Assembly (NCBI GenBank): GCA_951812995.1
Contig: CATOTD010000009.1
Span: 1 to 64,000 of the forward strand
DNA length: 64,000 bases
From: an uncultured Gammaproteobacteria bacterium
GTDB lineage: Bacteria; Pseudomonadota; Gammaproteobacteria; Eutrophobiales; Eutrophobiaceae
Direction of reading: 5' to 3'
The notes under the pieces are model-generated. The model had not been told where the DNA came from. It saw nothing but the letters and a program-made list of their open reading frames with translations, and made no database searches. A program made the position numbers and the translations under genes. Numbering within the stretch: position 1 is the stretch's first letter; the number at the start of each line of letters is the position of its first letter. This document shows, piece after piece, positions 2,050-54,500 of this stretch.

Positions 2050-3426
2050 TCATACATAATACTCGGCGGTATAACGCCAGGCTTGGGTAGGTGATTCAGA
2101 TTGTTTTATGCCCGCTTTGCGTTTCAATTCGTCTAAAAATTGTCTCTTATTTTGTATTGACTCCCATACGACAGGCAAAAAAGTCGCTCTGGCACTATTC
2201 TTTTGAATGATTAAACCATCAATATTGGGACGCAATTGATTAAGTAAATCATCTTCGCCGTTAAAAGCGAGCGGTATAGCGGGGGTCAATATCGACAAAC
2301 TGATCTCGATTTGTTTGTATTCATCAGCCGTGAGCGGTTTAAAGCGCGGATCAGAGAATGCAGCAGCATAGGCATATTGTGCCACAGCCTCTATCAGAGG
2401 TGCGTGTGCTTCGGTGATGCCAATGCAACCCCGCAATTTGGCATGCAGTTTTAAGGTAATGAATACAGCATATTGTTTTCTAAGTCGTGCATTGTAGTTT
2501 TCAAGTTTAGGCTTATAAGCACGGCCCTTCTCAAGACCGTGCACAATGCTTTTATTGATGACATCAAAGACTATCGTCTTATCTTCATTATTCAGTATTG
2601 AGTCATCAGAATTAGTAAACAACGCATAAGCACCATAGCCAACAACACGATCTTTTGTGCCCGCCGTGTCACCCGAGTTACGCAGATCAAGTTTTTGTAT
2701 ACGCATCTTTTTTTCCTGCGCGATTTTTAACAAACCGCGTATGGGCATACAGCCACAGGCTTGATCCGGACCGATTGCCGCATACTCAAAGTTTTCGATC
2801 AGACGACTCGTGTCGTTGTCTTTTTTGAGTGCTGTCTCATAATCTAAGTAGTGGCTGAGATCAGAGCTGATCACAATCAAGGTTTCGTCGCCTTCCCAGA
2901 GATCGTTCAGCAGCGTGGCGACTTGTTCGACGTGAGCCGCACCGAGCAATAAAGGCACGAGCGTGAAGTCATCAAGCACCTTTTGTAAAAAAGGGAGCTG
3001 TACTTCAAGGCTATGTTCTAGTTCATGCGCAGCATCCGAAAAATGCACATCAGGATAATTTTCCAACTGGTTTATTAATTTTGTGTCTATGGCAATATTG
3101 CCGAGCGGAGTGGCAAAATGTGTATTTGATGGCAGGGCTATGCCCTTGACGTAAACGCGATGAGCTGGACCCAATAACACAACGCGTGTAATTTGATTTT
3201 TGAATAATGCAATATGTGAATAGACACTGGCTGCGATTTGACCTGAATAAATAAAGCCAGCATGAGGCGCAATAATTGCCTTAGGTGGTTTAACAGCAGA
3301 TACTTTTTTATGCAGAAAATCATCCAGCAATTTACGCAACTGGTTTGTTTTTTTTGGATAGAAGCTACCCGCAACCGCAGGTGCTCTGATAGAAAGTCGG
3401 CGTTGCTGTAACGTGCTTGTAGTCAT
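2050..3426 (-). CDS. AmmeMemoRadiSam system protein: MEMO1 domain fused to AMMECR1 domain
   Basis: A 458-residue protein joins two families that are often separate genes. Residues ~14-270 are a MEMO1-like domain (RAPAVAGSFYP, IIAPHAGFIYSGQIAASVYSHI, VVLLGPAHRVY, VISSDLSHYLDYETA, PDQACGCMPI), a non-haem-iron-dioxygenase-like fold. Residues ~285-458 are an AMMECR1 domain with the signature LRGCIG near residue 332. The two families plus a radical SAM enzyme form the AmmeMemoRadiSam set, whose biochemical role is unknown to me. The radical SAM partner is divergent 85 bp away, so shared regulation from the intergenic region is plausible. Confidence 0.92.
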   Translation of the reverse strand: MTTSTLQQRRLSIRAPAVAGSFYPKKTNQLRKLLDDFLHKKVSAVKPPKAIIAPHAGFIYSGQIAASVYSHIALFKNQITRVVLLGPAHRVYVKGIALPSNTHFATPLGNIAIDTKLINQLENYPDVHFSDAAHELEHSLEVQLPFLQKVLDDFTLVPLLLGAAHVEQVATLLNDLWEGDETLIVISSDLSHYLDYETALKKDNDTSRLIENFEYAAIGPDQACGCMPIRGLLKIAQEKKMRIQKLDLRNSGDTAGTKDRVVGYGAYALFTNSDDSILNNEDKTIVFDVINKSIVHGLEKGRAYKPKLENYNARLRKQYAVFITLKLHAKLRGCIGITEAHAPLIEAVAQYAYAAAFSDPRFKPLTADEYKQIEISLSILTPAIPLAFNGEDDLLNQLRPNIDGLIIQKNSARATFLPVVWESIQNKRQFLDELKRKAGIKQSESPTQAWRYTAEYYV

Positions 3427-18849: not shown

Positions 18850-21800
18850 ATGAAATACAAATACTCTTCTCTTCTCAGCGTCTGCATGATGACATTCCTG
18901 ACCGGGTTTTATGCACCTGCCCATGCCGATGATACTGAAATTTATCTAGGTGCTGCGGCAAATGCCGCTAACATCAAAAATAATATTTTATTCATTCTCG
19001 ATACCTCATTTAGCATGCAGGCCGCTGTCTTGGTCGACAAAAATAATGACGGCACCCTTGATCCGAATGACCCGGACGAAAATCTAGGCAGTCGCATTTC
19101 AATACTAAAAAATGCTATGGACACCTTGATAACGGGTCTGCCGCCTACGAATGTGGGTTACATGCGCATGAATGGTACTGAAGCCCCTGGAAGAGGCGGT
19201 GCAAGCCGCACATGTAATGCTGCACAGATTGCCTTGGGTGCCACCCAGTACTATAGGAATAGAATCAGCACTACTAATACTGGTGGTGTCTCTTGGGGTA
19301 GCAAGTGTTATCTGCCTATCGGTGGTCACGTCATGTTCCCTGTGACCGACATTGAGTCGCCTGCCAGCGATGCCTTGACATTCAGCCTGGTTGCACCCAT
19401 CAAAGCCTCTGCAGACGATGCCGTGCAAGTCGGATCAACCGTCATCGACGACGAGAACCTTGAACTTGGGTACCAATCGTGCCCTACAGGTGCAATACAA
19501 GACCTAACGGCACGCATTACCAGCGCCGACAACGATGCTGACGAGACCTCAGCACGCGTGGTCAGGACCACTGCTAACCGTATCGAGCTAGGCCAACGAT
19601 CAAGCGGTTTTCGTTTTCAAAATATCGATATTGATCCTGCCGATTCTATTCTCAGTGCCTCCATCATATTTACTAGCAGGGCACGTAGTATTGCTCCACT
19701 TGACTTAGAAATCAGCGGCGGTCGCAGTGCTGATAGTAGTAGTACCTTCGCTACCAAGAATATCTCTAGCCGAGGTAAAACCACCGCTACAATAGACTGG
19801 GTCGACGTGCCTGAGACTGTTAATAATCAGAAACTGACCACCCCTGATTTGTCGGCGGTCGTCCGGGAAATAATCGAAGAAAAAACCATCGGCGGCACGG
19901 CCGCCTGGACTGCGAATGACGCAATGGTTTTCCTACTCGACGGCGACCCGAGCATTGTTGAAGGCCGACGCATTTACAATTACAGGGGTGATGCCAGCAA
20001 AGCGGCGGAGCTAAGAATCAAGTATTGTGATGAGAGCGTAAGGACGAGTAGCGTACCTCCACTTGCAACGGAACGAACCTGGATTGGCTTACGTTTTCAG
20101 GATGTCGGCTTGCCACAAGGTGTCGAGGTCACATCGGCCACCATTGATTTTACGGCCAGTTATTCCGGCAACAACGCGAATAACAATGGAGGTCCAGATG
20201 ATAGGATCGCAATTCTTGGAGAAGACACGGATGATGCGGCACCTTTTGTCACAGGGACACCATTTGGCACTCGTACAAAAGTAGGACGGGTGTTGTGGAC
20301 CGGTACTGACATGGGTACCTGGGTAGAAGGGGGCACCTATACAACGCCTAATCTCTCAGACATTGTTGAGTCTATCGCCGAACGCCCTGGATGGTGTGGC
20401 GGCAACGACATGGCTTTTTTTCTACGGGGTGGTAGAAACGAGATCAGACGCTTGGCCAAGAGTTGGGATAACGATCCTGCCAATGCACCGGCACTGCGTA
20501 TTACTTACCAGCCTACTTATAAGGTTGGCGCTACTGGTTGTAATATACGCAGCTTTGAGATACCCATCATACAAAGCGATCATGATGCACAAACCAACTC
20601 GAATACGACCATGGTCACGACACTCAATAACAAATTGCAATTGGCAGCAACCGACAATCGTACCATCGGTCTGATCTTTAAATTACCCGTTAAAAAAGAT
20701 GCAGATATTATGGATGCCAGATTGGAATTTATTGCCAATAGCAATAATGCAAGTGGTGTGGGTATTTCAAAAATGTTGATCAAAGCCGAAGTCAGTGATA
20801 ATGCGGCAGTCTTTGAAAACACAGATGGCAATCTTAGCCCCAGTACGCGCCCCCGCATCAGTACGCAAATTCCGTGGTCACAAGGCCCGGCAGCTGCTAA
20901 TGCGACTTTTGCCAGTGCCGATGTGGCACCTTTGATAAGTGCAGTCACGTCAAGAGTAGGTTGGGTAAAAGATAATAAGATGGCCTTTCTTATAGAAGAT
21001 GATCCGGGTGGTACGGCCATCCGTCGGCAGGCTAAATCGTTTGATGACAATCCTGTAAATGCACCTACTCTGCACATTACCGTGAAAGAGACCCGCGGTA
21101 TACAGACACCGAAGACCGTGCGTGAGCGCTTATTAGAGATTAATAACACGTTTAACGTAAGTACCCTGCTCGGCTGGACACCCAGTACTGAGACCTTATA
21201 TGAGGCATCACTGTATTGGCGGGGTAAAGGTGTCTTGTTTGGCAAGAAACGCGGTTTGGCCAATCTGCCGAACCCAACGCATGGTGTTGATTATACTCTC
21301 AAGGCGGAACGCGCGAATACTAGCCACCCTGGTTCCTACACGGGCGGCACCTATAAGGACGATTATGACACGACGGACGCGCGCGGTGGTGGTACCGACT
21401 GCCAATTTAAAAACACACGAGATTGTATGCATGACGTTATCGAGGGCTCACCGACCTATATCAGTCCGCTAAATACGGGACTTGCGTGTGCGAAGAATTA
21501 TCAGATATTCCTCACAGATGGTGCCCCCACATCTGTTGCAGAAAGCACAATACGTACGATCATAAACGATTTCGCTGACATTGGCTCCTGCTCAGTAGAT
21601 CCAGCGGTTAATGCCAGTACGCAAAAGGGTTCTTGTGCTGTTGAGATGGTTAAGAGCCTGTATGATAATGACCTCAACACTACTGCCACTGGCAAGCAAA
21701 ATGTGGAAACGTACACGATTGCTTTTAATCTGCAAAGTAACACGGCTAAAAATTGGTTAAAACAGTTGGCAACGGCGGGTGGTGGGGAAGCCTATACGGC

Positions 21801-24168
21801 CAATACTACAGCTCAACTGTTGGCTGTATTTAATAAAATCTTGAATACGGCCATTGAAAAGCCAACCTCTTTCGTCTCACCTGCCATTGCGGCTAATTCT
21901 TTTAATCGGTTATTCAGTCGCGATGAGGTTTACTTCGGCATGTTCCAACCTAAAATTGACAGACGTTGGGACGGTAATATTAAAAAATACCGTGTTTGTA
22001 CAGATACTACTACTGGTTGCCAGCTGGGCGATATCCTACAAGCAGACGGTACCTTGGCTGTCGTCAAAGGTAGCACTGACGTTAAGGAAGAAGGATTATT
22101 TAAGACTGATGCAGTCAGTATCTGGAGCCAACGCCAAAGCATTACACCCGGGGATGATGTCGGTCGCGAAGTTTCCCCGAATCTACTGAATAACTTTGCC
22201 AAAGTGGGTGGAGCAGGGGGTGCCTTGAGCGATTATAGAAGCCGTATAATCTATACCGATAAAAAGGATGACGGCGTTGGCGGTGATAAACAGGCTAGCA
22301 GAAATGAATCGTTGCATACCAATGGCTTCATATTTAAGCACGATACCTGGAACGCAGCTGCCTTGCGCCCAACCCGCGAAGCCGTCTGCCCCACGCCAGA
22401 GACGGACGTTGATGATCCTAACAATAAAAGACAATGTATTGATTACATGCTTTGGGTCTTAGGCAGGGACGTGTTGGATAAAGACAAGGATGGCGACACA
22501 ACCGATACGCGCTGGAGTTTTAATGACGTTCTGCATTCAAGCCCGGTATCCGTGACTTATGGTAAAGACACTAATGATAAGTTTATTGATAAAATTCTTG
22601 CGGGTACCAACGATGGCGGCCTGCGCTTTATTAATGGCGAGACGGGCGAGGAAGAATGGATATTCATGCCCAACATACTACTTAAAAACCAGGCCTCGCT
22701 TTACAAAAATGGGGTAGGCCAGCATGTCTATGGTCTGGATGCCTCCCCTGTTTTGCGTATCAAGGATAAAAATAATGATGGCACCATTGATCCGGCCGAT
22801 GGTGATTTTGTGCATGTCTATATCGGTATGCGCCGAGGCGGCAATAAAATGTATGCCCTTGATATATCACCACCAGGGCGTTTGACGACAAATGCTAAAG
22901 GGAATATCACGCCGAATATCACGCCCAAGTTCTTATGGATGATTGATGGTGATGCCCCTGCCCCGACCATTTTCGATCGATTGGGACAAACCTGGTCTGA
23001 TCCAGTGTTGTCCACCATTGCCGTGGATAATATACCGACCGACGTGCTGATATTTGGTGGCGGTTATGATGGCAGGTTAGATACGTCTTATGGTGCTAAT
23101 AAGTTTGACCCGAATAAGGGCAACGCTATTTATATTGTCAATGCGGGTACGGGCGAGAAGATCATGGATATCAGCGGTGACAGTCCTGGCATTACGGCCG
23201 ACATTCTAGTTCGCCATATGTATCACGCCATTCCATCTAAGCTTACTGTCATCGATTCTGACGGTGATGGCCTAGATGACCGGATCTACGTCGGTGATAT
23301 GGGGGGTAATGTCTGGCGTGTTGACCTTGGCGGCGACATCAAGGTGGGTAACCCCGGTCAATCAACCGTTGGCCGCCTTGCCAGCGTCACGGATAATGGC
23401 ATCAATGGTGATAACAGAACAAATGATGGTGTTTATGATGAGCCCGCTACGCAGCGTCGCTTCTTCGTGCCACCCTCTGTTGTACAAGTTGCAAATGATA
23501 AATACTCTAATGTTGCAGATTATGACTATGTGCTTATTCCATCTGGAAATCGTGCCAGCCCGTTAGAGACAGTCGTTAACAATCGTTTCTATGCCTTTAG
23601 AGATAGAACGATTGGTAAAATGGCTCGTAGTAACACTGGTCAGGCGAGAAATTATCCTAGAGCATCAGGCCGCCCTATCAGAGATGACGGTATCAGGGAG
23701 ATGATTGATATCAGCAACGTCGTCAACTCGGGCGCGGGTCTTGACTCGGCTGTTAATGCGCATAAACGAGCACTCGGTTGGTTTCTGGATCTTAATAAGG
23801 ATGGTGAAAAAGGACTGACAACACCGGTTTCTGTTGCTGGCACAGTCTTTTTCCCAACCTATATCCCGGAAAAAGCCGCATCAAGTAGCGATGCTTGTGA
23901 TGCGCGTGAGGGTTCTAGTCGCGTGTTTGCTTTGGATATCGTGTCTGCAGGGTCGTCGTCCATTGATTGGGATGGCGATGACGTTACACAGCATGATGCT
24001 GATGATGTCGTACAAGAGCTTGGGGCAGGCATACCCTCTGAGGCCGTGCCAATATTCACACCAGAAGGTGTGACCTTGCTTATCGGTACGGGCGGCGGTG
24101 CACAAAATCTAGGGAAAATTTCTGATCTACCTCGATTCCGCACCTATTGGTATAAAGAAGAAAGCTAA
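18850..24168 (+). CDS. pilY1: PilY1-type pilus tip adhesin with three extra beta-domains
   Basis: PilY1 is an exported calcium-binding protein needed for pilus extension, adhesion and surface sensing. The signal peptide ends near residue 26 (APAHA|DD). A von Willebrand A-like region begins at ~45 with the MIDAS motif DTSFSM and is completed near 888 by LTDGAPTS. Between them lie three tandem ~150-residue beta-domains (~237-397, 407-557, 591-754), each ending in an A-x-x-L-x-I-x-Y/V pattern. The C-terminal propeller (~1230-1750) has the family's calcium loop DSDGDGLDDRIYVGDMGGNV near 1470; DKNNDGTIDPAD and DKDKDGDTTD are further loops. At 1,772 residues it is much longer than the ~1,160 of Pseudomonas PilY1, mainly because of the inserted domains. 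Confidence 0.93.
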   Translation: MKYKYSSLLSVCMMTFLTGFYAPAHADDTEIYLGAAANAANIKNNILFILDTSFSMQAAVLVDKNNDGTLDPNDPDENLGSRISILKNAMDTLITGLPPTNVGYMRMNGTEAPGRGGASRTCNAAQIALGATQYYRNRISTTNTGGVSWGSKCYLPIGGHVMFPVTDIESPASDALTFSLVAPIKASADDAVQVGSTVIDDENLELGYQSCPTGAIQDLTARITSADNDADETSARVVRTTANRIELGQRSSGFRFQNIDIDPADSILSASIIFTSRARSIAPLDLEISGGRSADSSSTFATKNISSRGKTTATIDWVDVPETVNNQKLTTPDLSAVVREIIEEKTIGGTAAWTANDAMVFLLDGDPSIVEGRRIYNYRGDASKAAELRIKYCDESVRTSSVPPLATERTWIGLRFQDVGLPQGVEVTSATIDFTASYSGNNANNNGGPDDRIAILGEDTDDAAPFVTGTPFGTRTKVGRVLWTGTDMGTWVEGGTYTTPNLSDIVESIAERPGWCGGNDMAFFLRGGRNEIRRLAKSWDNDPANAPALRITYQPTYKVGATGCNIRSFEIPIIQSDHDAQTNSNTTMVTTLNNKLQLAATDNRTIGLIFKLPVKKDADIMDARLEFIANSNNASGVGISKMLIKAEVSDNAAVFENTDGNLSPSTRPRISTQIPWSQGPAAANATFASADVAPLISAVTSRVGWVKDNKMAFLIEDDPGGTAIRRQAKSFDDNPVNAPTLHITVKETRGIQTPKTVRERLLEINNTFNVSTLLGWTPSTETLYEASLYWRGKGVLFGKKRGLANLPNPTHGVDYTLKAERANTSHPGSYTGGTYKDDYDTTDARGGGTDCQFKNTRDCMHDVIEGSPTYISPLNTGLACAKNYQIFLTDGAPTSVAESTIRTIINDFADIGSCSVDPAVNASTQKGSCAVEMVKSLYDNDLNTTATGKQNVETYTIAFNLQSNTAKNWLKQLATAGGGEAYTANTTAQLLAVFNKILNTAIEKPTSFVSPAIAANSFNRLFSRDEVYFGMFQPKIDRRWDGNIKKYRVCTDTTTGCQLGDILQADGTLAVVKGSTDVKEEGLFKTDAVSIWSQRQSITPGDDVGREVSPNLLNNFAKVGGAGGALSDYRSRIIYTDKKDDGVGGDKQASRNESLHTNGFIFKHDTWNAAALRPTREAVCPTPETDVDDPNNKRQCIDYMLWVLGRDVLDKDKDGDTTDTRWSFNDVLHSSPVSVTYGKDTNDKFIDKILAGTNDGGLRFINGETGEEEWIFMPNILLKNQASLYKNGVGQHVYGLDASPVLRIKDKNNDGTIDPADGDFVHVYIGMRRGGNKMYALDISPPGRLTTNAKGNITPNITPKFLWMIDGDAPAPTIFDRLGQTWSDPVLSTIAVDNIPTDVLIFGGGYDGRLDTSYGANKFDPNKGNAIYIVNAGTGEKIMDISGDSPGITADILVRHMYHAIPSKLTVIDSDGDGLDDRIYVGDMGGNVWRVDLGGDIKVGNPGQSTVGRLASVTDNGINGDNRTNDGVYDEPATQRRFFVPPSVVQVANDKYSNVADYDYVLIPSGNRASPLETVVNNRFYAFRDRTIGKMARSNTGQARNYPRASGRPIRDDGIREMIDISNVVNSGAGLDSAVNAHKRALGWFLDLNKDGEKGLTTPVSVAGTVFFPTYIPEKAASSSDACDAREGSSRVFALDIVSAGSSSIDWDGDDVTQHDADDVVQELGAGIPSEAVPIFTPEGVTLLIGTGGGAQNLGKISDLPRFRTYWYKEES

Positions 24169-24272: not shown

Positions 24273-24278
24273 TATAAT
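24273..24278 (+). promoter_or_regulatory. possible -10 element of pilE
   Basis: A perfect TATAAT lies 25 bases before the pilE ATG. No convincing -35 hexamer sits at the right distance. The fit to a sigma54 site upstream (TGGCAC at about 24184) is poor because the -12 GC is missing and the spacing is off by one. Confidence 0.4.
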
Positions 24279-24303
24279 GCGCCAATATTTACAGGTGGTC
24301 ACG

Positions 24304-24768
24304 ATGCATATTAATAAGCAATTTATTTCAAATACACCAAAAGCTAAGGCACGCGGTTTTACGCTAATGGAATTAATGATAGTCGTTGCCATAATCGGGG
24401 TAATCGCATCTATAGCAATTCCGAGTTATACACAATACGTCATCCGCGCCAATCGGGCTGAAGGTCGGGCCTTCTTATTGGATGCCGCTGCAAGACAGGA
24501 GCGATTTTATTCTGATAACAATCGATATACTAAATTTCCACAAAGCTTCATGTCAGAGCCTGCCAATTGTACTATGGCTAACATACAGTCTGAAACATGC
24601 AGCTACACCTTAGCAGTCCGGTTATTCAATGATGGTCAACGATTCACGCTTAGGGCTATACCAGAATCATTCACCGATGCTGATTGCGGAAGGCTTATTC
24701 TAAGGCAGGACGGCACTAAAGGTAGAACAGGAACAAAAAAAAGTATAGCTGTTTGCTGGGGTAAGTAA
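24304..24768 (+). CDS. pilE: type IV pilin, PilE family
   Basis: From the ATG at 24304 (with AGGTGG upstream) the prepilin is 154 residues. The 23-residue leader ends KARG, then mature FTLMELMIVVAIIGVIASIAIPSYTQYVIRANRAEGRAFLLDAAARQERFYSDNNRYTKF, a classic PilE signature. Two cysteines (ESCSY-type region near residue 108 and VCWGK at the C-terminus) resemble the C-terminal disulfide of pilins. It follows pilY1 by 135 bp and may have its own promoter. It is probably a minor pilin of the same machine; whether it is the major subunit cannot be told. Confidence 0.9.
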   Translation: MHINKQFISNTPKAKARGFTLMELMIVVAIIGVIASIAIPSYTQYVIRANRAEGRAFLLDAAARQERFYSDNNRYTKFPQSFMSEPANCTMANIQSETCSYTLAVRLFNDGQRFTLRAIPESFTDADCGRLILRQDGTKGRTGTKKSIAVCWGK

Positions 24769-27009: not shown

Positions 27010-27687
27010 GTGGTTTTAATGAAGAGTTATAACCGAATCTGGTGTCTGAATAAATTTGAAGTATGCGGCGTGCCTTGCTGGAATCGGTTTTGTCTAGCAA
27101 TCGAAAGTAGCAAGAGGAGCACGCCACCCATGGCAAACAATACTGTGATTGATCTGGGTACACCAGAGGGCATTGACCCGTTGACTGAATTGCTACGTAG
27201 CGGTGCCAAACAGCTGATAACAGAAGCGATTCAGGCGGAGTTGGCCGAGTTGATGGCAAGTTTTGATAATCAGAAAACGAGTGAAGGCAGACAGCGTGTT
27301 GTGCGCAATGGCTATCACCCAGAACGAGAAGTATTGACCGGTGTTGGCAAAGTACCAGTGTCGGTGCCAAAGATCCGTAGCCGAGAAGGCGAGCCTGAGA
27401 GCTTCCAATCGTTAATAGTGCCTCCTTACATCCGGCGCACAGCGACCCTGGACGCGGCGATTCCCTGGCTTTATTTGCAGGGTGTTTCGAGTGGTCAGAT
27501 GCAGAGCGCCCTGGAAGTGATTGTCGGGCCTGATGCCAAGGGCTTATCCGCCAATGCAGTTGGTCGCCTGAAACGTCAGTGGGAATCAGAGTACAAAACC
27601 TGGAGTACACGTTCAGTGACTGACGAATGGGTCTATATCTGGGCTGATGGCATCTACAGTGGTCTTCGAGGTGACGATGGTTTGTAC
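27010..27687 (+). pseudogene. truncated IS256-family transposase
   Basis: The transposase starts at the ATG at 27130 (MANNTVIDLGTPEGIDPLTELL). It keeps the N-terminal DNA-binding half and the segment with the first catalytic aspartate (DEWVYIWADGIYSGLRGDD). It is then cut at 27687 by the inverted repeat of the next element, leaving about 186 of the usual ~400 residues; the second Asp and the Glu are missing. This is a different IS256 subgroup from the remnants at 25655 and 36262, judging by its N-terminus. The left end of the element lies somewhere near 27000 but is not resolved. Confidence 0.85.
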
Positions 27688-27744
27688 GGGGACATCTGAA
27701 TTGATCATTCGGGACATCTGAATTGATTACTCTTTTTTAGGTAC

Positions 27745-27765
27745 TTATCCATAGAGTTATACACA
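27745..27765 (+). other. two DnaA-box-like nonamers
   Basis: TTATCCATA (27745-27753) and TTATACACA (27757-27765) lie three bases apart at the left end of the gene-free element. The second equals the R2 box of E. coli oriC; the first differs from TTATCCACA at one position. Confidence 0.35.
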
Positions 27766-28185
27766 GATAGGGCTGATATTTGGTTGATTTTGGTGGTCAT
27801 TTTTTGGGTCTTTTTTAGGCCTTTTTAAGGGTATTTAAGTGCCCCTTAATCATCCCTTAATTTGGGGTTAAATCAAGCCCAATATTTGGGTCGATTTTGG
27901 CGGCCTTTTTGAGGGTGATTTTTGTCCTGATTTTAAGGCTTATGGATTGCCTAAAAATGACGGTATCCCCGTCTCAATTTCATCAACCGGATAGTTGTTA
28001 TTTCCGGTGTAGTTTTCCTGCAAGGTGCCGGTGTCCGGCACTGGATTTTCAGTATAAATGGGGTCGGTCGTTTTTGATAAATCAGGGCAAGATATGTATG
28101 TTTGATAATTTGCATTGTCTGGTTACTTTTTAACCACAGCCTTGAAACATCCAATCGCCCCAAAAATGTTCCCACCTTTACAAAG

Positions 28186-28194
28186 TTATCCACA
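28186..28194 (+). other. consensus DnaA box TTATCCACA
   Basis: This is a perfect match to the DnaA nonamer, inside the same gene-free element and on the same strand as the two at 27745-27765. No dnaA, dnaN or plasmid rep gene is nearby. Confidence 0.35.
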
Positions 28195-28690
28195 GGCAAT
28201 ATCCCTGATTTTCTGTTGTTTCTATGCTTTTTAATCAATAAAAACAATGATTTATTAAAGTGGTGCGCTTTATTAGGTTAATTATTAACCACCGCACCGC
28301 TTTAAACGCCCTTTTTATACATTTTAGAGCGCTATTAAACGCATAAAGTGCTTACTTTTCAATAACTTAAATGCGCCTAAAGATGCTCCGCCGCGATGAT
28401 CAATTCAGTTGTCCCTGAACCCGCAAAAATCGGCTATTTTTTAAATCCGCACTACTTTGTACCCACCTTTTTCGCACTTAGCACAGGCTTAAGTGCTTGA
28501 TTATACGGCCTTATTCGCTGATTAAGCTAACAGTGATCAATTCAGTTGTCTCGCGGCGGCTTAAATCGACTATTTTCGCCCTTCGTTGCGGCTTCTATCG
28601 GCTTCTTAAACCCTTGCTATAAAAGCCTTTCCATTCCATCCCATGTCACCTCATTCCGCCTCATTCCACATGATCAATTCACATGTCCCC

Positions 28691-29799
28691 CCACAGCGGA
28701 AGTTGTAGCTCAGGTTGGCCATGGTCATGCGGGCCTTCGCACGGTTTTGGCCGATTGAGCGGATGGTCAGAGCCATGGGCCCTTTCTCGTAGCCGAACAC
28801 AGGCGCGGATGGCGGAGCGTGTCGCGTTGCCCCGACGAATATGCCTGGCCATGGGTTTGCCGCGTGGCTTCTTGCGATGGATATGTGAGCGGTACCCTTG
28901 CGCCTTCAGCCAAGCCTCATTCCTGGCCGAGCGGTACCTGGTATCGGCCCAAACCGCCTTCGAGCTGTTTGTCTCGTCCAGAACCGAGGAGCGTTCATGC
29001 CCGTCGTAGCGAGCCGCATTCGTGCCAGTCTCACCCCGGATGAAGCGCCATTTGCGGTCTATGGACACGTGGTTCTTATAGCCGAAGTGCGGAACCGAAA
29101 TATCGACAAGGCCAGTATCCTCCTCACCCTCCTTGGTCGTCTTGGCCTTTGAATACTTGACCGTCCAACGCGCATCGGTGTCTTTCTGCGCTGCCTTGGA
29201 CAGATCATCGGGCCAGATGTCAGACGCGGCCTCACCTGCCTTGGCGCGCGCTTTCTCTGCTTTCGTCATCCGCTGGCGCGGGGCAAAGACCAACGTGACA
29301 TCCACAATCTGACCGCCGGTCGGTTTGTACCCCCGCGCGCACAGCTGAGCTTCAAACGCGGCAAACAGGGCCTTGAAGACACCCGCCTGGGTCAGCTTCT
29401 CTCTGAAAAGCCAGATCGTCTTCTGATCAGGTGTCGGCTCCCCGATTTGAAATCCCAGGAACCGTAGCCAACTGAAACGGTCACGAATGAGAAACTCCAT
29501 CCGCTCATCGCTCAGATTGTGCATCAAGGCCAAGACCAGCACCTTGAACATCACAACGGCATCATAGGGCGGACGACCACCTTTGGGACGTTCCCCATAG
29601 CCAAGCGCTTCAACAAGAACTGGGCGAAACACTTCGAAATCAACGTGCCGCTCCAAAACCTCAAGCGGATCTCCCATCGCCGAAAGCCGCGCCAAATGAT
29701 CCGTCAAGTCAAACAATCCAGGTGCGGGCATAAACAAAATCCTCCCACATCAAGTGAATCAGATCGTACCACAAAATGCACGGTTTTTAGAGGCTTCCA
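28691..29799 (-). mobile_element. IS5-family element, copy 1 (3' end truncated), defective transposase
   Basis: The transposase runs on the minus strand from the ATG at 29731 (MPAPGLFDLTDHLARL). The DDE region shows the first Asp in GGQIVDVTLVFAP and the second in KAVWADTRYRS. After SAIRA the sequence should continue R-V-E-H-V-F-G, but an ~11-base deletion removes the catalytic Glu and shifts the frame. The original C-terminus (VFGYEKGPMALTIRSIGQTRAKA...) is still readable one frame over. The far end is cut off by the 1,003-bp element. The preserved right end is TTTTTAGAGGCTTCCA at 29799. It is about 95% identical to copy 2 at 36765-38065 and is GC-richer than its surroundings. Confidence 0.85.
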
Positions 29800-42500: not shown

Positions 42501-45500
42501 GTCGATATCCACGCCGGAGTCTATGATCACAACAGTGTAGCCACCGCCTTTTAAATCCGGAAAATTGCCGCGGGCCTCGGCTAGATTGATCTGATCCTGA
42601 AAATTGTCAGATACCCACAGCGGTTTGGCTATGGCTTGCTGTGCGCTGTCTTGCGTAGCGGCCGAATTGGCGGCACCAGTTTCAGGATCTGGCCTGGGAG
42701 AATAGGAATAGGTGCCGGCTTTACTCTGCCAATGAGCACTCAATAAACCCCTATCGGGCCCGGCCGTAAACCGCCAATTATTTGCATCTGGATCGACCCA
42801 ACTGCTCGCCGGACTTATATTCACCGATGGTTCACGCTGGTCGGTTATCCCGATGGTGATGTCTTTTGTGGCGGTCTGTCCGCTGGCATCCGATACGGTG
42901 ATGGATAAGGAAAACTCGGTCTGTTCCTCATAATCGGGGGTAAGACCGTTTTGGAAGGTGATTTCGCCCGTGCTCGAATCGATGGTAAATAACGTAGCAT
43001 CGTCGCCGCCGAGTGTCCAGGTGAGTGCACCTTGGGCATATTGTGTCTGGCCGGTATAGACGGGGAGGGTTGCGCCATACTGGATACCTTCATTCAGACG
43101 GTCCGCATTAGCAGATGAGCTGATGATAAGTGCCAATGAATCGATGACCGGGAGGGTGACATCTTGTTGCGCCGTCTGTACGCGGTTAGCCCCGCCAGGC
43201 ACCGTCTCGGTCACGGTGGCGACAACGGTGAATTGATAGCTTTTCTTATCGTCATACTCAACGGTGCTATCATGCTTGAACGTCACCCGACCGGCATCGT
43301 CTATGTCAAACAGCCCCGCATCACCCCCGGTCAGGCTGTAGGTCAATACGCCCACATCGCCCGTCGCCTGTGCCGTATAGACGACATCGCCCACATTACT
43401 GGCATCACTGGCCTTATATTCCTTACCATCTTGCAGATCGACTATCACAGGTGGCTGCAACACCGGGGCCTCATCATTGATATCCACCACTGCAACCGTG
43501 ACGCTCTGCTGCGCCAACACCTGGGTGTCAACAACATATTCAATGGTGTAGCGGTAGTTGGTGGTGCCACTTTCATAATCGGGATTCGGGGTTGCAGGGT
43601 CTAATACTTTCCACGTCACCGCCCCTGAAGTTGCATCAATATCAAACAGGCCTGCCTGATCATTGTTATTGGGTTTCAGGCGGAAAACCCCATCATTGGG
43701 GAACGGGAAGTTGCCCTGGCTGATGATACCCATCCCTCGCAACGGGGTGCTTACCTGTGGATTGGTCGCTATGTTGGTATTTTCCATCACGTCAATGCGC
43801 ACGTTGCTATTGGTAAAGCCAGCCGCTTGCCCACCCGGGTTATAGCGGGTCAATTTGGCAGGTTTGCCTGCAATATCAAAATCACCCAAGATCGGGGCAG
43901 TCGTGGTGCCGGCCAACACCGCCAGCACGTGGCTACCATCACTGGTGCCATAGAAGATAATCTGGTTATTGGGCACGTCTATGTCATACCAGACTTCATT
44001 CAAGGTTGTGACCAGCTTGTCCGCCGTGCCGCCCACGCCCCAATCGGTGATCAAATCCGCATTGGCAATGGTGGTGGCGATAGATGACAGCACAAAGACA
44101 TCCCGACCGGCCCCGCCGGTCAAGGTATCACGCACCGCGTCCACCCCACCATCCAGACGGTTAACACCCGAGTCACCGGTCAAATGATCGCGGTAAACAG
44201 AGCCGATGAGGTTTTCAATATTGCTTAACACATCGCCTGCGGCAAAGCCGCCGACATTTTTGCTATTATCGCCCAAGTCAACGGTAACGCCCGTATCGGA
44301 GTCGGTATAACTCACGGTATCCACACCACCCGCGCCGTCAATGGTATTGGCATCACGATTGGAAATAAAGGTCTCGTCGTCCGCTTCCCCCACAACGGAG
44401 CTGGTGTTCGTGTTGTCAACGGTGATGGTATGGGTAGTGGGATCGGAGTCTTTGCCTTCACTATCACGCAGTACCACTTCGAATACGCGATCACCATTAC
44501 TGGCGTTGTCCGCATCGGTGTTGCGATAGCGTAAGGCATGGATAATCGCCTCGACCTCAATGGTCGTTAAGGAGCCGCCGGTCTTGGTCAACGTGATGGT
44601 GGCGTTGGCACTATTCCAGGCAAGATTGAGGTCGCTGATACCGGCGATAGTCACGTTGTTAGCGTTGGTATTGACCGCACCACCGATGGACAGCACGCCC
44701 GTGCCATAGGCTAGTTGCTCGTTGTTACGATCCAGGCCAGTGGTGGTAATGGTGATGCGGGTGATAGTCGCTGGCATTGATAACTCAATGATCTGTATGC
44801 CGGCCTCAAAACTCGGTGCCACGAAACCGTATAGCTTACCTGCGATCACCGCCGTGGTGATGGCGGTGGCAGCAAACAACGCGATGTTGGCATTGTCGGT
44901 AATGGTAGCCACTGCCATGGGCGCATACGGGTTGGATAGTGCAATCATCTGTACCCCGTTATCCTCTTCGGCGGTGACCAATGCGTAGGGCTTACCATCT
45001 ATCACCACCGTGGTGATGGCCACAACCCCATCCAATGCAGTAAATGGGCTACTCGCATCCTGGTTGTTATCGACAATCGCGGCGACCGCCGTTGGATTAT
45101 ACGGGTCGGAGATGTCGATAATCTGTACCCCGTCATCGTCTTTGGCGGCGATCAGCGCGTAGGTCTTGCCATCGATCACCACCGTGGTAATAGCGGTGGC
45201 ACCATCAAGTGTGGTGTAGGGGCTATTGGCATCCTGGTTGTCATCGACAATAACAGCCACGGCTAATGGTGCGCTCGGCGTGGATATATCAATAATCTGC
45301 ACCGCATCATCAGTTTCGGCTGCAATCAGCGCGTAGGTCTTGCCACCGATCACCACCGTGGTAATGTCACTGGCACCAGCCAATGCGGTGAATCGGGCAC
45401 CCTTGCTGATGGCGGCGGTGGCAGTCGGGCTACCTGGGTTACTGATGTCGATAATCTGCACCCCGTCATTAAAGTAGGCGGCGATGAGTGCGTAGGTCTT

Positions 45501-48500
45501 GCCTTTGATCACCACCGTCGTGATGGCGGTGGCACCATCAAGTGCGGTACTTGCCGTATTGGCAATCGATGCGGTGGCCTTGGGATCGGTTGGATCGGTA
45601 ATGTCGATAATCTGTACCCCATCACCAGAACGGGCGGCCACCAAGGCGTAGGTGTTACCGGCAATGACCACCGTGGTGATAGATTGCGGGTCACCGAGTT
45701 TTTCAAAAACCTGCTTGGCACTATCGCTACCTCCATTGTAGATACTGGTTATTTGCAACGGTTTGCCAGGGTCTGTGACATCAAGTATCTGTATGTTGCC
45801 ACTGCCAAAAAAGCCACCGACACTGGCCAGCACGTAGGTCTTGCCATTGATCACCACTGTCGTGATCGCAATCGGGCCGCTGGCAAACCGGCCCAGGTTA
45901 AAGGTGTTGCCAAGGTCATCTTGATCGTTCGCTCTGATGGCGCGGGTCGCAAGTAAGGTGATGGCTTGATGGTCATCGGCACGCACGCCGCTGGACAAGG
46001 CAACACCGGCTTCCAATCTCAAGGTACCGGCGGGCGTGCTGATGGTGCGGCTGGTGGTATCGGCCGCGTTCAAGTCCAGGATGGGTTTGGTGTCAAAATA
46101 GACAAAATCATTGGGGTTTGTTAAATCTGTTTTTTTGACCCCGGTCAGCGTGATGGTATGACCCGGGCTGGTGGTAATGACCGCGTTATTGCCCACATCC
46201 TTGGTTGCAGCCAGTACGGCTTGATGGTTGGTAAAACCAACAATGGCGGACAGATCGATTTTATCCGTGCCGCTTACAAAACCGGTGATGGTGTCTGTAC
46301 CGTGACCAGCGGCAAAGACAAAGGTATTTGTACCTGTACCCCCATCAAGCGTGTCATTGCCCGCACCGCCGATAAGCCGGTCATCGCCCGTACCGCCGAC
46401 GAGCCGATCATCACCTGCACCACCGGTAAGCCGGTCACCACCGCCACGGCCTTCGATGACATTATCCTGATCATCACCGCTTAAGCGGTCGTTATAAGCT
46501 GAGCCGATGATGTTTTCGATATTGTCCAGGACATCGCCTGCGGCAAAGCTACCGGCATTTTGGGTATTATCGCCCAAGTGTACCGTGACCGCAGCCGTGG
46601 CACCGGTATAGTCTATGGTATCGACACCGCCCTTGCCGTCAATAATGTCGGGGGTGTTGCTTGCAACAAAAGACTGGGGGGTGTTATTGCCTGGTTGCGC
46701 GCGGCTATCGACCGTGACGCTATATACCGCCGCCGTGGAGGCCAGCCCGTCAACATCGGTGAGTACGATCGAGAACGTGCGCTCGCCATTGTTGGCGCGA
46801 CCGGCATCGGCATTACGATAACGCAAGACACCGAGTATGACCTCAACCGCGATGGTTGTTAAGTTGCCGCCAGTCTTGGTCAGTGTGATGGTGGCGGTGG
46901 CACTATCCCAGGCAAGATTGAGGCCACTGACACCGGCGATAGTCACGTTGTTAGCGTTGGTATCGGTCGCCTCGCCGATGGACAGGAACTCACCAGCCCC
47001 ACTGCCATAGGCTAGTTGCTCGTTGCTACGATCCAGGCCCGTGGTGGTGATGGTGATGCGGGCGATGGTCGCCGGTAGTAGCTCGATGATCTGTACCCCG
47101 AGATCACCACGAGCGGCGTTAATGCTATAGAGCCGCCCGTCAATTATCGCGGTGGTGGTGGCAAATGCGTCATCAAGCTCGGTGTAGGGGCTATTCATAT
47201 CCTGATTGTCATCGACAATGGCAGCCACGGCTTTGGGTGCGGCAGGATCGCTGATGTCAATTATCTGTACCCCATCATCCCGGCCCGCCACGACCAGGGC
47301 GTAGGTCTTGTCCGCCACAACCACGGTACTGATGTCGCGGGCACCATCAAGTGTGGTGTAGGGGCTATTGTCATCTTTATTGTCATCGACAATAGCGGCT
47401 GTGGCCTTGGGATCATCCGGATCGGAGATGTCGATAATCTGTACCCCATCACTACGGGTCGAGACGACCAGGGCGTAGGTCTTACCGGCAATGACCACCG
47501 TGGTGATGGCGGCGGCACCATTTAGCACGCTGTATCTATTACCATCACTATCTGTGTTGTCATGGGTGATGGCGGTGACGTGTTGCGGGACGGCCGGGGT
47601 CGATATGTCAATAATCTGTATCCCGTTGCTATCGGCGGTCACCAGGGCGTAAGTCGCATCGCCGATGACCACCGTGGTGATGGCGTTTGTGTCAGTCAGG
47701 CTGGTAAATCCATTCACCCCACCGGTAATCGTGGCCGTGAAGGTCGAGCTTGTGGGCGTGGTGATGTCGATAATCTGTACCCCGTTATCATCACGAGCGG
47801 CGATGAGCGCGTAGGTGTTGACACCGATGCCCACCGTGGTGATGGCAACAGCACCGTCCAGTGCGGTACCCGCCGTATCAGAGATCGATGCCGTGGCCTT
47901 GGGATCAGTGGGATCGGTGATCTCAATAATCTGTACCCCGTTATCCTCACGGGCGGCGATGAGCGCGTAGGTCTTGCCGCCGATAACCACCGTGGTCATC
48001 GATCTTGGATCGTCCAATTCATCAAACCTGCCCATGGCACTGTCGGTGCTTTCATCGGCAATGCTTGTCACCTGTCGCGGGTTGTTTGGCGCAGTAACAT
48101 CGATAATCTGCACGCTATCGTCATCGCCGCGCACGGCCACCAGCGCGTAGACTCTGTTGTTAATCACCACGGTAGTAACGGCCGCCGGGTTACTAGATTC
48201 AGCACCCAATTCAAAGGCTTGACCGGTACCATCATCATCACCATCGTTTATGGCTGCGGTGGCAACGGGCGCGAGCGTCTGATGGTCAGCGGCTGTGGCA
48301 TCGGCGGCCAAGGCAATGCCATTGCTAAGCATCGCCGTATTGATAAGACTGCGGGTTGCAGTAAGCGCAAGCGTTGGCTCACTACCATAATAGATAAAAT
48401 CAGTGTTTTTTAAATCTGCTTTTTTGACCCCGGTCAGTGTGATGGTATGACCCACACTGGTGGTGATCACTGCGTTACCACTGCCATCATCAGCCGTTGC

Positions 48501-51500
48501 ATCTCGCACGGCGGTAATGCTGGTAAAACCGACAATGGCGGATAAGTCTATTTTATCCGTGCCGCTTACAAAGCTGGTGATGGTATCCGCGCCGTGACCA
48601 GCGGTAAAGACAAAAATATCAGCACCCGCACCGCCCGTTAAGACATTGTCATTCGCATCACTAACTAATCTGCCATTTGCCGCATCATTATCGCGGGTGT
48701 TTACGCGATGGGTATTACTGACGGGGATGGCCGCACTATTGGTCGCGGCATCATGACCTGCAGCATCTTGGATAGTGCCGCCACTTAAAGCGATATTGGC
48801 ATTGACAACAATACCATCAGTATCGGTGTCGTCATTGGCGACAGTATAACGAAAGACCAGCGTGGTGGCGGTAGAGAGACCGGCTACATAGCTGGCCGTG
48901 CGGGTGTTGCCGCCAACCTCAACCTCAATAGTCGGTGTACCAGTGATAACCACCGCCTCATCATAGGTTACCGTGATGTCGATGTGATTACCGGTGACGT
49001 AGGTGTTATCAGGACCAGCAGAGTTCACCGTGGTGCTTTGTATGGTCGGGGCCTCGGTGTCTATGGTGATGGGGTTGGCATTGCTACCCACAACTGATTG
49101 ATTGCCCGCCACATCGGTTTGGCGGACTTGTATGGTATTGGCGCTATAGACACCGTCTGCAAGCGTGATGGTGTTGCTGCCTACAGTGCCCGCCGTCCAG
49201 TTGCTGCCGCTGTCTGTTGAGTACCTCCACGCGGCACCCGCTTCAAGACCGGTGACCGTGATGGTCGGGTTGTTGCTGATGTTGTCGCTGGTATTGGTAC
49301 CTGTGTCGATAAAGGCGATACCAGGGGGCAAGGCCTCGGTGTCTATGGTGATGGGGTTGGCATTGCTACCCACAACTGATTGATTGCCCGCCACATCGGT
49401 CTGGCGGACTTGTATGGTATTGGTGCTATAGGTGCCGTCTGCAAGGGTAATGGTGTTGCTGCCTACAGTGCCCGCTATCCAGTTGCTGCCGCTGTCTGTT
49501 GAGTACCTCCACGCGGCACCCGCTTCAAGACCCGTGACCGTGATGGTCGGGTTGTTGCTGATGTTGTCGCTGGTATTGGTGCCTGTGTCGGTAAAGGCGA
49601 TACCAGGGGGCAAGGCCTCGGTGTCTATGGTGATGGGGTTGGCATTGCTACCCACAACTGATTGATTACCCGCCACATCGGTCTGGCGGACTTGTATGGT
49701 ATTGGTGCTATAGGTGCCGTCTGCAAGGGTAATGGTGTTGCTGCCTACAGTGCCCGCTATCCAGTTGCTACCGCTGTCTGTTGAGTACCTCCACGCGGCA
49801 CCCGCTTCAAGACCGGTAACCGTGATGGTCGGGTTGTTGCTGATGTTGTCGCTGGTATTGGTACCTGTGTCGATAAAGGTGATACCAGGGGGCAAGGCCT
49901 CGGTGTCTATGGTGATGGGGTTGGCATTGCTACCCACAACTGATTGATTACCCGCCACATCGGTCTGGCGGACTTGTATGGTATTGGTGCTATAGGTGCC
50001 GTCTGCAAGGGTAATGGTGTTGCTGCCTACAGTGCCCGCTATCCAGTTGCTACCGCTGTCTGTTGAGTACCTCCACGCGGCACCCGCTTCAAGACCGGTA
50101 ACCGTGATGGTCGGGTTGTTGCTGATGTTGTCGCTGGTATTGGTACCTGTGTCGATAAAGGCGATACCAGGGGGCAAGGCCTCGGTGTCTATGGTGATGG
50201 GGTTGGCATTGCTACCCACAACTGATTGATTGCCCGCCACATCGGTCTGGCGGACTTGTATGGTATTGGTGCTATAGGTGCCGTCTGCAAGGGTAATGGT
50301 GTTGCTGCCTACAGTGCCCGCTATCCAGTTGCTGCCGCTGTCTGTTGAGTACGTCCACGCGGCACCCGCTTCAAGACCGGTGACCGTGATGGTCGGGTTG
50401 TTGCTGATGTTGTCGCTGGTATTGGTGCCTGTGTCGGTAAAGGCGATACCAGGGGGCAAGGCCTCGGTGTCTATGGTGATGGGGTTGGCATTGCTGCCCA
50501 CAACTGATTGATTGCCCGCCACATCGGTTTGGCGGACTTGTATGGTATTGGCGCTATAGACACCGTCTGCAAGCGTGATGGTGTTGCTGCCTACAGTGCC
50601 CGCCGTCCAGTTGCTGCCGCTGTCTGTTGAGTACGTCCACGCGGCACCCGCTTCAAGACCCGTGACCGTGATGGTCGGGTTGTTGCTGATGTTGTCGCTG
50701 GTATTGGTGCCTGTGTCGGTAAAGGCGATACCAGGGGGCAAGGCCTCGGTGTCTATGGTGATGGGGTTGGCATTGCTACCCACAACTGATTGATTACCCG
50801 CCACATCGGTCTGGCGGACTTGTATGGTATTGGTGCTATAGGTGCCGTCTGCAAGGGTAATGGTGTTGCTGCCTACAGTGCCCGCTATCCAGTTGCTACC
50901 GCTGTCTGTTGAGTACCTCCACGCGGCACCCGCTTCAAGACCGGTAACCGTGATGGTCGGGTTGTTGCTGATGTTGTCGCTGGTATTGGTACCTGTGTCG
51001 ATAAAGGCGATACCAGGGGGCAAGGCCTCGGTGTCTATGGTGATGGGGTTGGCATTGCTACCCACAACTGATTGATTGCCCGCCACATCGGTCTGGCGGA
51101 CTTGTATGGTATTGGTGCTATAGGTGCCGTCTGCAAGGGTAATGGTGTTGCTGCCTACAGTGCCCGCTATCCAGTTGCTACCGCTGTCTGTTGAGTACCT
51201 CCACGCGGCACCCGCTTCAAGACCGGTGACCGTGATGGTCGGGTTGTTGCTGATGTTGTCGCTGGTATTGGTACCTGTGTCGATAAAGGCGATACCAGGG
51301 GGCAAGGCCTCGGTGTCTATGGTGATGGGGTTGGCATTGCTACCCACAACTGATTGATTGCCCGCCACATCGGTCTGGCGGACTTGTATGGTATTGGTGC
51401 TATAGGTGCCGTCTGCAAGGGTAATGGTGTTGCTGCCTACAGTGCCCGCTATCCAGTTGCTGCCGCTGTCTGTTGAGTACCTCCACGCGGCACCCGCTTC

Positions 51501-54500
51501 AAGACCGGTAACCGTGATGGTCGGGTTGTTGCTGATGTTGTCGCTGGTATTGGTACCTGTGTCGATAAAGGTGATACCAGGGGGCAAGGCCTCGGTGTCT
51601 ATGGTGATGGGGTTGGCATTGCTACCCACAACTGATTGATTACCCGCCACATCGGTCTGGCGGACTTGTATGGTATTGGTGCTATAGGTGCCGTCTGCAA
51701 GGGTAATGGTGTTGCTGCCTACAGTGCCCGCTATCCAGTTGCTACCGCTGTCTGTTGAGTACCTCCACGCGGCACCCGCTTCAAGACCGGTAACCGTGAT
51801 GGTCGGGTTGTTGCTGATGTTGTCGCTGGTATTGGTACCTGTGTCGATAAAGGCGATACCAGGGGGCAAGGCCTCGGTGTCTATGGTGATGGGGTTGGCA
51901 TTGCTGCCCACAACTGATTGATTGCCCGCCACATCGGTTTGGCGGACTTGTATGGTATTGGCGCTATAGACACCGTCTGCAAGCGTGATGGTGTTGCTGC
52001 CTACAGTGCCCGCCGTCCAGTTGCTGCCGCTGTCTGTTGAGTACGTCCACGCGGCACCCGCTTCAAGACCGGTGACCGTGATGGTCGGGTTGTTGCTGAT
52101 GTTGTCGCTGGTATTGGTGCCTGTGTCGGTAAAGGCGATACCAGGGGGCAAGGCCTCGGTGTCTATGGTGATGGGGTTGGCATTGCTGCCCACAACTGAT
52201 TGATTGCCCGCCACATCGGTTTGGCGGACTTGTATGGTATTGGCGCTATAGACACCGTCTGCAAGCGTGATGGTGTTGCTGCCTACAGTGCCCGCCGTCC
52301 AGTTGCTGCCGCTGTCTGTTGAGTACGTCCACGCGGCACCCGCTTCAAGACCCGTGACCGTGATGGTCGGGTTGTTGCTGATGTTGTCGCTGGTATTGGT
52401 ACCTGTGTCGATAAAGGTGATACCAGGGGGCAAGGCCTCGGTGTCTATGGTGATGGGGTTGGCATTGCTACCCACAACTGATTGATTGCCCGCCACATCG
52501 GTCTGGCGGACTTGTATGGTATTGGCGCTATAGACACCGTCTGCAAGGGTAATGGTGTTGCTGCCTACAGTGCCCGCTATCCAGTTGCTACCGCTGTCTG
52601 TTGAGTACCTCCACGCGGCACCCGCTTCAAGACCGGTAACCGTGATGGTCGGGTTGTTGCTGATGTTGTCGCTGGTATTGGTACCTGTGTCGGTAAAGGC
52701 GATACCAGGGGGCAAGGCCTCGGTGTCTATGGTGATGGGGTTGGCATTGCTACCCACAACTGATTGATTGCCCGCCACATCGGTCTGGCGGACTTGTATG
52801 GTATTGGCGCTATAGACACCGTCTGCAAGGGTAATGGTGTTGCTGCCTACAGTGCCCGCTATCCAGTTGCTACCGCTGTCTGTTGAGTACCTCCACGCGG
52901 CACCCGCTTCAAGACCGGTAACCGTGATGGTCGGGTTGTTGCTGATGTTGTCGCTGGTATTGGTACCTGTGTCGATAAAGGTGATACCAGGGGGCAAGGC
53001 CTCGGTGTCTATGGTGATGGGGTTGGCATTGCTACCCACAACTGATTGATTGCCCGCCACATCGGTCTGGCGGACTTGTATGGTATTGGTGCTATAGGTG
53101 CCGTCTGCAAGGGTAATGGTGTTGCTGCCTACAGTGCCCGCTATCCAGTTGCTACCGCTGTCTGTTGAGTACCTCCACGCGGCACCCGCTGCAAGACCGG
53201 TAACCGTGATGGTCGGGTTGTTGCTGATGTTGTCGCTGGTATTGGTACCTGTGTCGATAAAGGTGATACCAGGGGGCAAGGCCTCGGTGTCTATGGTAAT
53301 GGGGTTGGCATTGCTACCCACAACTGATTGATTGCCCGCCACATCGGTCTGGCGGACTTGTATGGTATTGGCGCTATAGACACCGTCTGCAAGGGTAATG
53401 GTGTTGCTGCCTACAGTGCCCGCTATCCAGTTGCTACCGCTGTCTGTTGAGTACCTCCACGCGGCACCCGCTTCAAGACCGGTAACCGTGATGGTCGGGT
53501 TGTTGCTGATGTTGTCGCTGGTATTGGTACCTGTGTCGGTAAAGGCGATACCAGGGGGCAAGGCCTCGGTGTCTATGGTCAAGGTAAAGGTGGCACTGAG
53601 ATCGCCAGCCGCGACCACGATACTCGTGCCTGGGCTTAATTGCACCACGCGGGCGGTCAAAACCGCATCCCCATCGGCAAGCGCAGGAAGGGTGTACGTC
53701 CAGTTGGTGCCGACCACGTTCGCCGTGCCGAGCAATACGCCGTTGTTGTAAACTTGTACGACTTCATTGGCGTTCAAGCCCGGGTTGATCGTGCCGCTTA
53801 AGGTCGGGGTGGTATCGTCCGTTACCCCGTTGTTGGTCAAGGCATCTGTCTTGCTGCCAACATCGTCTGTGGCCAAGGTAATGGTGGTGCGTGTCGCCAA
53901 TGGCAGTACGGAGCCGTCAACCGTTTTGCCTGCATCAACGGCCACCGCTTGGTAGTTTAAGGTGGCATTGTTACCGGCCGTGTCGGTGATGGTCGTGCCC
54001 AGGGGTAGCGTGATGCTACCCGCCTCAATCTCAATGCCATTGCCATCGGTATCGCCGAGTTGGACAACATAACGAAAGACCAAAGTGGTCGAACTAGATA
54101 GCACACTCACATAACTGGCCAGCTTGGGAGCACCGCCGCCGATGTCTATGCTGACCGTCGGCGTGCCAGTTACCGTGACCGCTTCATTAAAGGTTAGCGT
54201 GATGTCTATGGGGTCACCAACTCGATAGGTGCTACCGTCATGGCGAACTCCATCGGCTATGGGTGGGTTGTTGATGGTCGGCAGACCGGTAATGGCCGGG
54301 GCCTCGGTGTCTATGGTGATGGGGTTGGCATTGCTACCCACAACTGATTGATTGCCCGCCACATCGGTCTGGCGGACTTGTATGGTATTGGTGCTATAGG
54401 TGCCGTCTGCAAGGGTAATGGTGTTGCTGCCTACAGTGCCCGCTATCCAGTTGCTGCCGCTGTCTGTTGAGTACCTCCACGCGGCACCCGCTTCAAGACC

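What the first reader, a model, noticed from the sequence alone, without database searches (positions are those of the whole stretch)
27688..28690. Gene-free 1-kb element with 20-bp ends, regularly spaced end repeats and DnaA-box-like sites
The element has 19/20-matching terminal inverted repeats, an extra repeat 23 bp inside the left end, and two more on the right at exact 137-bp intervals. Inside are TTATCCATA, TTATACACA and a perfect TTATCCACA on the same strand, plus AT-rich repeats. Possible readings: ends of a Tn7/IS21-like non-autonomous transposon, or a captured plasmid origin with iteron-like repeats. It carries no transposase or rep gene.
Basis: partly seen in the sequence, partly recalled or inferred. 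Interest (0 to 1): 0.6.

Follow-up and report, generated by a model that had tools for sequence, protein, structure and literature searches.

The report
Gene-less jumping element, transposase unknown
The 1-kb stretch is a mobile DNA element that has lost its gene and is probably moved by an enzyme encoded elsewhere: three identical copies, inserted with 8-base duplications of their targets, sit in this genome beside older gene-carrying relatives, and nothing like it was found in any other genome searched.

Summary
The element runs 27683-28695 (1013 bp), with TGT...ACA ends about 25 bp long, a second end-repeat 22 bp inside the left end and two more on the right at 137-bp steps. Three identical copies and about nine diverged, longer or partial relatives lie in the same genome. 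Six insertion sites carry perfect 8-bp target duplications, and uninterrupted copies of two target sites exist. It is therefore a transposable element, not a captured plasmid origin. It is an internally deleted form: relatives carry an ORF of at least 265 codons under purifying selection (dN/dS mostly 0.15-0.44); the window copy keeps only the last 59 codons. The ORF matches nothing in Pfam, NCBIfam, PHROGs, PADLOC or PDB sequences, so the gene-less copies were probably moved in trans. Neither an autonomous copy nor the transposase was found, here or elsewhere. The end layout resembles Tn7/Mu/IS21-type elements, but the duplication is 8 bp, not Tn7's 5, and no Tn7 or IS21 genes were found. DnaA-box-like sites are enriched (about 1 in 1000 shuffles) and sit at fixed offsets in relatives; their function is inferred only. 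Flanks are permuted among identical copies, by recombination or misassembly. A new MITE-like family; interest moderate.

The parts
27683..28695 (+). whole element, 1013 bp, drawn left to right
   Evidence: ends set by comparing copies with different flanks; identical copies at C3:392204-393216 and C1:275356-276368
27683..27707 (+). left terminal repeat TGTACGGGGACATCTGAATTGATCA
27711..27729 (+). second left end-repeat, 22 bp further in; a degenerate counterpart in L024, absent in the other copies
28671..28695 (-). right terminal repeat TGTGGGGGGACATGTGAATTGATCA (read inward)
28534..28552 (-). right subterminal repeat, 137 bp from the terminal one; present in most copies
28397..28415 (-). right subterminal repeat, 137 bp further in; present in the three identical copies, L023 and L025
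27745..27753 (+). DnaA-box-like TTATCCATA (left pair, first)
   Evidence: same offset from the left end in all left arms once extra end-repeats are allowed for
27757..27765 (+). DnaA-box-like TTATACACA (left pair, second, 12 bp after the first)
28186..28194 (+). perfect DnaA box TTATCCACA near the right arm; counterparts in L022 and L025 (TTATCCACA) and L023 (TTATCAACA)
27800..27826 (+). three T-tracts 11 bp apart; DNA curvature is inferred, not measured
27943..28119 (-). last 59 codons of an orphan ORF that is longer in relatives; 95% identical to the L023 protein
28115..28117 (.). internal deletion junction: about 608 bp of L023 (positions 437-1045 of that element) missing here
28120..28136 (+). 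small inverted repeat TGGTTACTTTTTAACCA next to the deletion junction; similar inverted repeats at the corresponding place in L023, L025 and L026
27675..27682 (+). CGATGGTT: left half of target duplication C; its partner is to the right of the copy in L032
28696..28703 (+). GCGGAAGT: right half of target duplication A; its partner is to the left of the copy in L031
27130..27682 (+). 5' part of an IS256-family transposase gene, cut by the element
   Evidence: uninterrupted copies match the joined site 120/120
28696..29737 (-). IS5-family transposase gene whose 3' end is cut by the element

Best explanation
The element is a non-autonomous, MITE-like DNA transposon. It is an internally deleted member of a family whose longer members carry one orphan gene. 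A transposase encoded elsewhere (not found) probably binds the 25-bp TGT...ACA ends and their subterminal repeats, pairs the ends, and inserts them with an 8-bp staggered cut. The DnaA-box-like pair beside the left end may tune this to host replication, as has been proposed for DnaA at Tn5 ends, or may do nothing. Shown: the ends, the copies, the 8-bp duplications, uninterrupted target sites and the internal deletion. Inferred: action in trans, the roles of the subterminal repeats and DnaA sites, and the transposase type.
For: Three identical copies and about nine relatives in one genome. Perfect 8-bp duplications at six sites: GCGGAAGT, GCATAGAC, CGATGGTT, GGTTTCGA, AGATGAGC, CACAATGC. Gapless uninterrupted copies of sites A and C elsewhere in the genome. 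Joining the flanks of site B gives a 305-codon reading frame with ATP-dependent DNA ligase domains. The longer relative L023 is 1650 bp with the same arms and its own 8-bp duplication. dN/dS of the ORF is 0.15-0.44 in most comparisons. Three identical gene-less copies at three target sites imply recent movement without the ORF in cis. DnaA binding at Tn5 ends is documented (PMC3347997).
Against: No autonomous copy or matching transposase was found in the genome or in other collections. The identical copies have permuted flanks, so no single one of them shows both halves of its own duplication. The DnaA-like sites differ between copies about as much as the arms do (0.11-0.18 against 0.14); the changes are only confined to box positions 5, 6 and 8.
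Confidence: 0.85

Rival explanations
1. Deletion derivative of a Tn7/Mu/IS21-type (rve-fold, multi-site) transposon, moved by a TnsB-, MuA- or IstA-like transposase that is now lost or unassembled. This is a narrower form of the best explanation, not an exclusive alternative.
For: TGT...ACA ends with GACA a few bases in, and several 19-20 bp repeats unevenly placed at the two ends, as described for Tn7-like ends (PMC13370975).
Against: 8-bp duplication instead of Tn7/Mu's 5 bp. The only IstB-type hit lies in a 470-aa frame taken to be DnaA. The rve hits examined were IS3- or IS481-type. The Mu-transpos_C search was uninformative because its controls did not ring.
Confidence: 0.3
2. Moved by a resident transposase of another family that makes 8-9 bp duplications, such as the abundant IS256-type or the IS1595-type elements.
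For: IS256- and IS1595-type genes are present. One IS256 end shares the stretch CCGCATGATCAA with some right ends (noticed by eye).
Against: The IS256 copy in L024 begins GAGTTAT and ends ATAGCTC, unlike TGT...ACA, and appears to have a 9-bp duplication. The IS1595-type ends were not delimited.
Confidence: 0.12
3. A captured plasmid or phage replication origin with iteron-like repeats.
For: Three DnaA-like sites, T-tracts and repeated 20-mers.
Against: Dispersed copies with 8-bp target duplications, repeats only at the ends and pointing inward, no rep gene in longer relatives, and no match in plasmid or phage records.
Confidence: 0.03
4. The orphan ORF is itself an unrecognised transposase, so that the longer members were the autonomous form.
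For: It is the only conserved ORF seen in the family and shows purifying selection.
Against: No match to any family; a middle segment that differs strongly between members, unusual for a catalytic domain.
Confidence: 0.06

Closest known systems
Bacterial MITEs / internally deleted IS derivatives (for example MITEAba12, PMC6382973, known here from its abstract)
   Same: short, no transposase, terminal inverted repeats, target duplications, multicopy, internal deletion
   Different: no parent IS identified; extra end-repeats inside both ends; 1 kb; longer members carry an orphan gene
Tn7-like transposons
   Same: TGT...ACA ends; several about 20-bp repeats unevenly arranged at the two ends
   Different: 8-bp rather than 5-bp duplication; no tns genes seen; no single preferred site
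IS21 family
   Same: repeated motifs inside the ends; 8-bp duplications occasionally reported for the family (own knowledge, not checked)
   Different: no istA/istB pair found in the genome
Tn5/IS50 ends
   Same: DnaA-binding site at the transposon end (PMC3347997)
   Different: in Tn5 the site lies within the terminal repeat; here a pair lies about 15-35 bp inside it; different repeat and, from own knowledge, a 9-bp duplication in Tn5

Membership tests
MITE / non-autonomous DNA transposon | terminal inverted repeats | tested here: met
MITE / non-autonomous DNA transposon | several copies with target-site duplications | tested here: met
   six perfect 8-bp duplications, uninterrupted sites
MITE / non-autonomous DNA transposon | no transposase gene in the element | tested here: met
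   the ORF of relatives has no known domain
MITE / non-autonomous DNA transposon | autonomous partner with the same ends (usual, not required) | tested here: inconclusive
   none found in this genome or in the collections searched; it may be lost, unassembled or too diverged
Tn7-like transposon | 5-bp target duplication | tested here: not met
   8 bp at six sites
Tn7-like transposon | tnsA/B/C core genes | tested here: inconclusive
   rve hits examined are IS3/IS481-type; Mu-transpos_C search had no working control
IS21 family | istA and istB | tested here: not met
   single IstB-type hit in the genome, in a 470-aa frame taken to be DnaA
Plasmid origin with iterons | replication gene beside tandem iterons | tested here: not met
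   no rep gene in the element or its longer relatives; repeats are only at the ends

The most novel reading that the evidence does not exclude
A transposon family of an undescribed transposase type (TGT...ACA multi-site ends, 8-bp duplications), whose movement is tied to the host replication initiator DnaA through a fixed pair of DnaA boxes beside one end, and which spread an orphan gene with an exchangeable middle segment.
Probability: 0.1. Interest if true: 0.6.

Novelty: new member of a known kind. Interest (0 to 1): 0.33.

Why it matters
It adds a transposon family with no known parent and an orphan gene, and it supplies defined ends for finding the transposase. If the DnaA sites matter, it would offer a further case, beside Tn5, of a transposon whose ends are read by the replication initiator. 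The permuted flanks also show how identical copies can mislead assembly or rearrange a genome.

Tried and rejected
End motif in 58 relatives, 369 genomes of the class, genome contigs and viral contigs: the few single hits lacked a partner repeat and look like chance. Orphan protein in 58 relatives, viral contigs, genome contigs, phages, plasmids and the order: none convincing outside the own genome. Element DNA in phages and plasmids: none. Rfam: none. A looser end pattern in the own genome gave no new pair of ends. The 137-bp right-hand spacing as an ancient tandem duplication: weak support only (14 of 500 shuffles as good). A single-strand fold of the right arm was only slightly better than shuffles (z -1.97). 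IS481-type elements as the parent: their visible start does not resemble these ends. A structure prediction of the orphan protein was not attempted, because its full-length copies come from loci outside the stated list for that tool.

Full report
Observation. Comparison with other copies sets the true ends at 27683 and 28695, five bases further out on each side, so that the terminal repeats read TGTACGGGGACATCTGAATTGATCA and TGTGGGGGGACATGTGAATTGATCA.

Copies. The genome (G000, 3.05 Mb, 17 contigs) holds three identical 1013-bp copies (C9, C3, C1) and diverged relatives at about 75-90% identity, some longer and some cut. The clearest long relative, L023 (C6), is 1650 bp and has its own perfect duplication GGTTTCGA.

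Insertion. For the three identical copies the two flanks of one copy never match each other, but they match across copies: window-left with L032-right (CGATGGTT), L031-left with window-right (GCGGAAGT), L032-left with L031-right (GCATAGAC). L021 and L022 are exchanged in the same way (AGATGAGC, CACAATGC). Joining matched flanks gives, for sites A and C, sequences found uninterrupted elsewhere in the genome without gaps, in IS5-type and IS256-type copies. For site B it gives one 305-codon frame with ATP-dependent DNA ligase domains, whose halves lie on contigs C1 and C3. Site D lies in an IS1595-type gene. A further insertion is probably split between the end of contig C13 and the start of C8, with an imperfect ATCACTGG/ATCATCGG pair (read by eye). 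Whether the permutation reflects recombination between identical copies or misassembly cannot be told here.

Internal gene. Longer relatives carry an ORF running from right to left. Its two conserved parts flank a middle segment that differs between members, and the sequence upstream of the motif YKGW also differs between copies, so the true start is unknown. dN/dS is mostly 0.15-0.44, which indicates a protein that was selected. It matches no family in Pfam, PHROGs, NCBIfam or PADLOC and no solved-structure sequence. The window copy has lost about 608 bp relative to L023 and keeps the last 59 codons. Because three identical gene-less copies occupy three target sites, the element moved after losing the gene, so the activity was supplied in trans (inference).

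Arms. The left arm carries a pair of DnaA-box-like 9-mers at +41 and +53 in L022, L023 and L026; the same pair is shifted by 22 bp in the window copy by its extra end-repeat, and in L024 by its own extra repeat. Their variants change only box positions 5, 6 and 8. Their overall divergence is no lower than that of the arms, so the case for selection on them is modest. In the element, three or more such sites on one strand occur in 0.1% of shuffles. T-tracts at 11-bp steps follow.

Search for a parent. The end motif was not found as a pair in relatives, in the class sample, or in genome and viral collections. In the own genome every close match belongs to this family. The rve-domain hits examined are IS3- or IS481-type, and the only IstB-type hit lies in a 470-aa frame taken to be DnaA. 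The family is therefore an orphan in everything searched; the collections are samples, and short diverged ends could be missed.

Verdict. A new family of non-autonomous, MITE-like transposons, of which the window copy is a recently active, internally deleted form. It works like other DDE-type elements moved in trans, with an end layout like that of Tn7/Mu/IS21-type elements, but it cannot be filed as a member of those families. The transposase type is open.

Noticed in passing
window 45100-63800: A DnaA-box-like 9-mer (TTATCGACA, - strand) recurs mostly every 282 bp, marking a very long tandem repeat, possibly a giant repeat protein.
   Followed up: no
window 18850-24168: Large PilY1-like ORF followed by a pilin-like ORF (24277-24768), judged from sequence only.
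   Followed up: no
L021:1684-1708 and L028:3898-3922; a similar one in L025 around 3158-3193: A palindrome AGTTGTCCGnnnnTTnCGGACAACT recurs near several of these elements; its half GGACAACTG also occurs in the right subterminal repeats.
   Followed up: partly
C3:391959-392210 and C1:276366-277046 (flanks of the copies in L031 and L032): An ATP-dependent DNA ligase gene is split by the element into halves on two contigs; no homologue was found in the 11 other genomes of the genus searched.
   Followed up: partly
window flanks and loci L021-L028: Several copies sit inside IS256-, IS5- and IS1595-type transposase genes; two insertions (site C and L026) lie within about 10 bp of each other in homologous IS256 genes.
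   Followed up: partly
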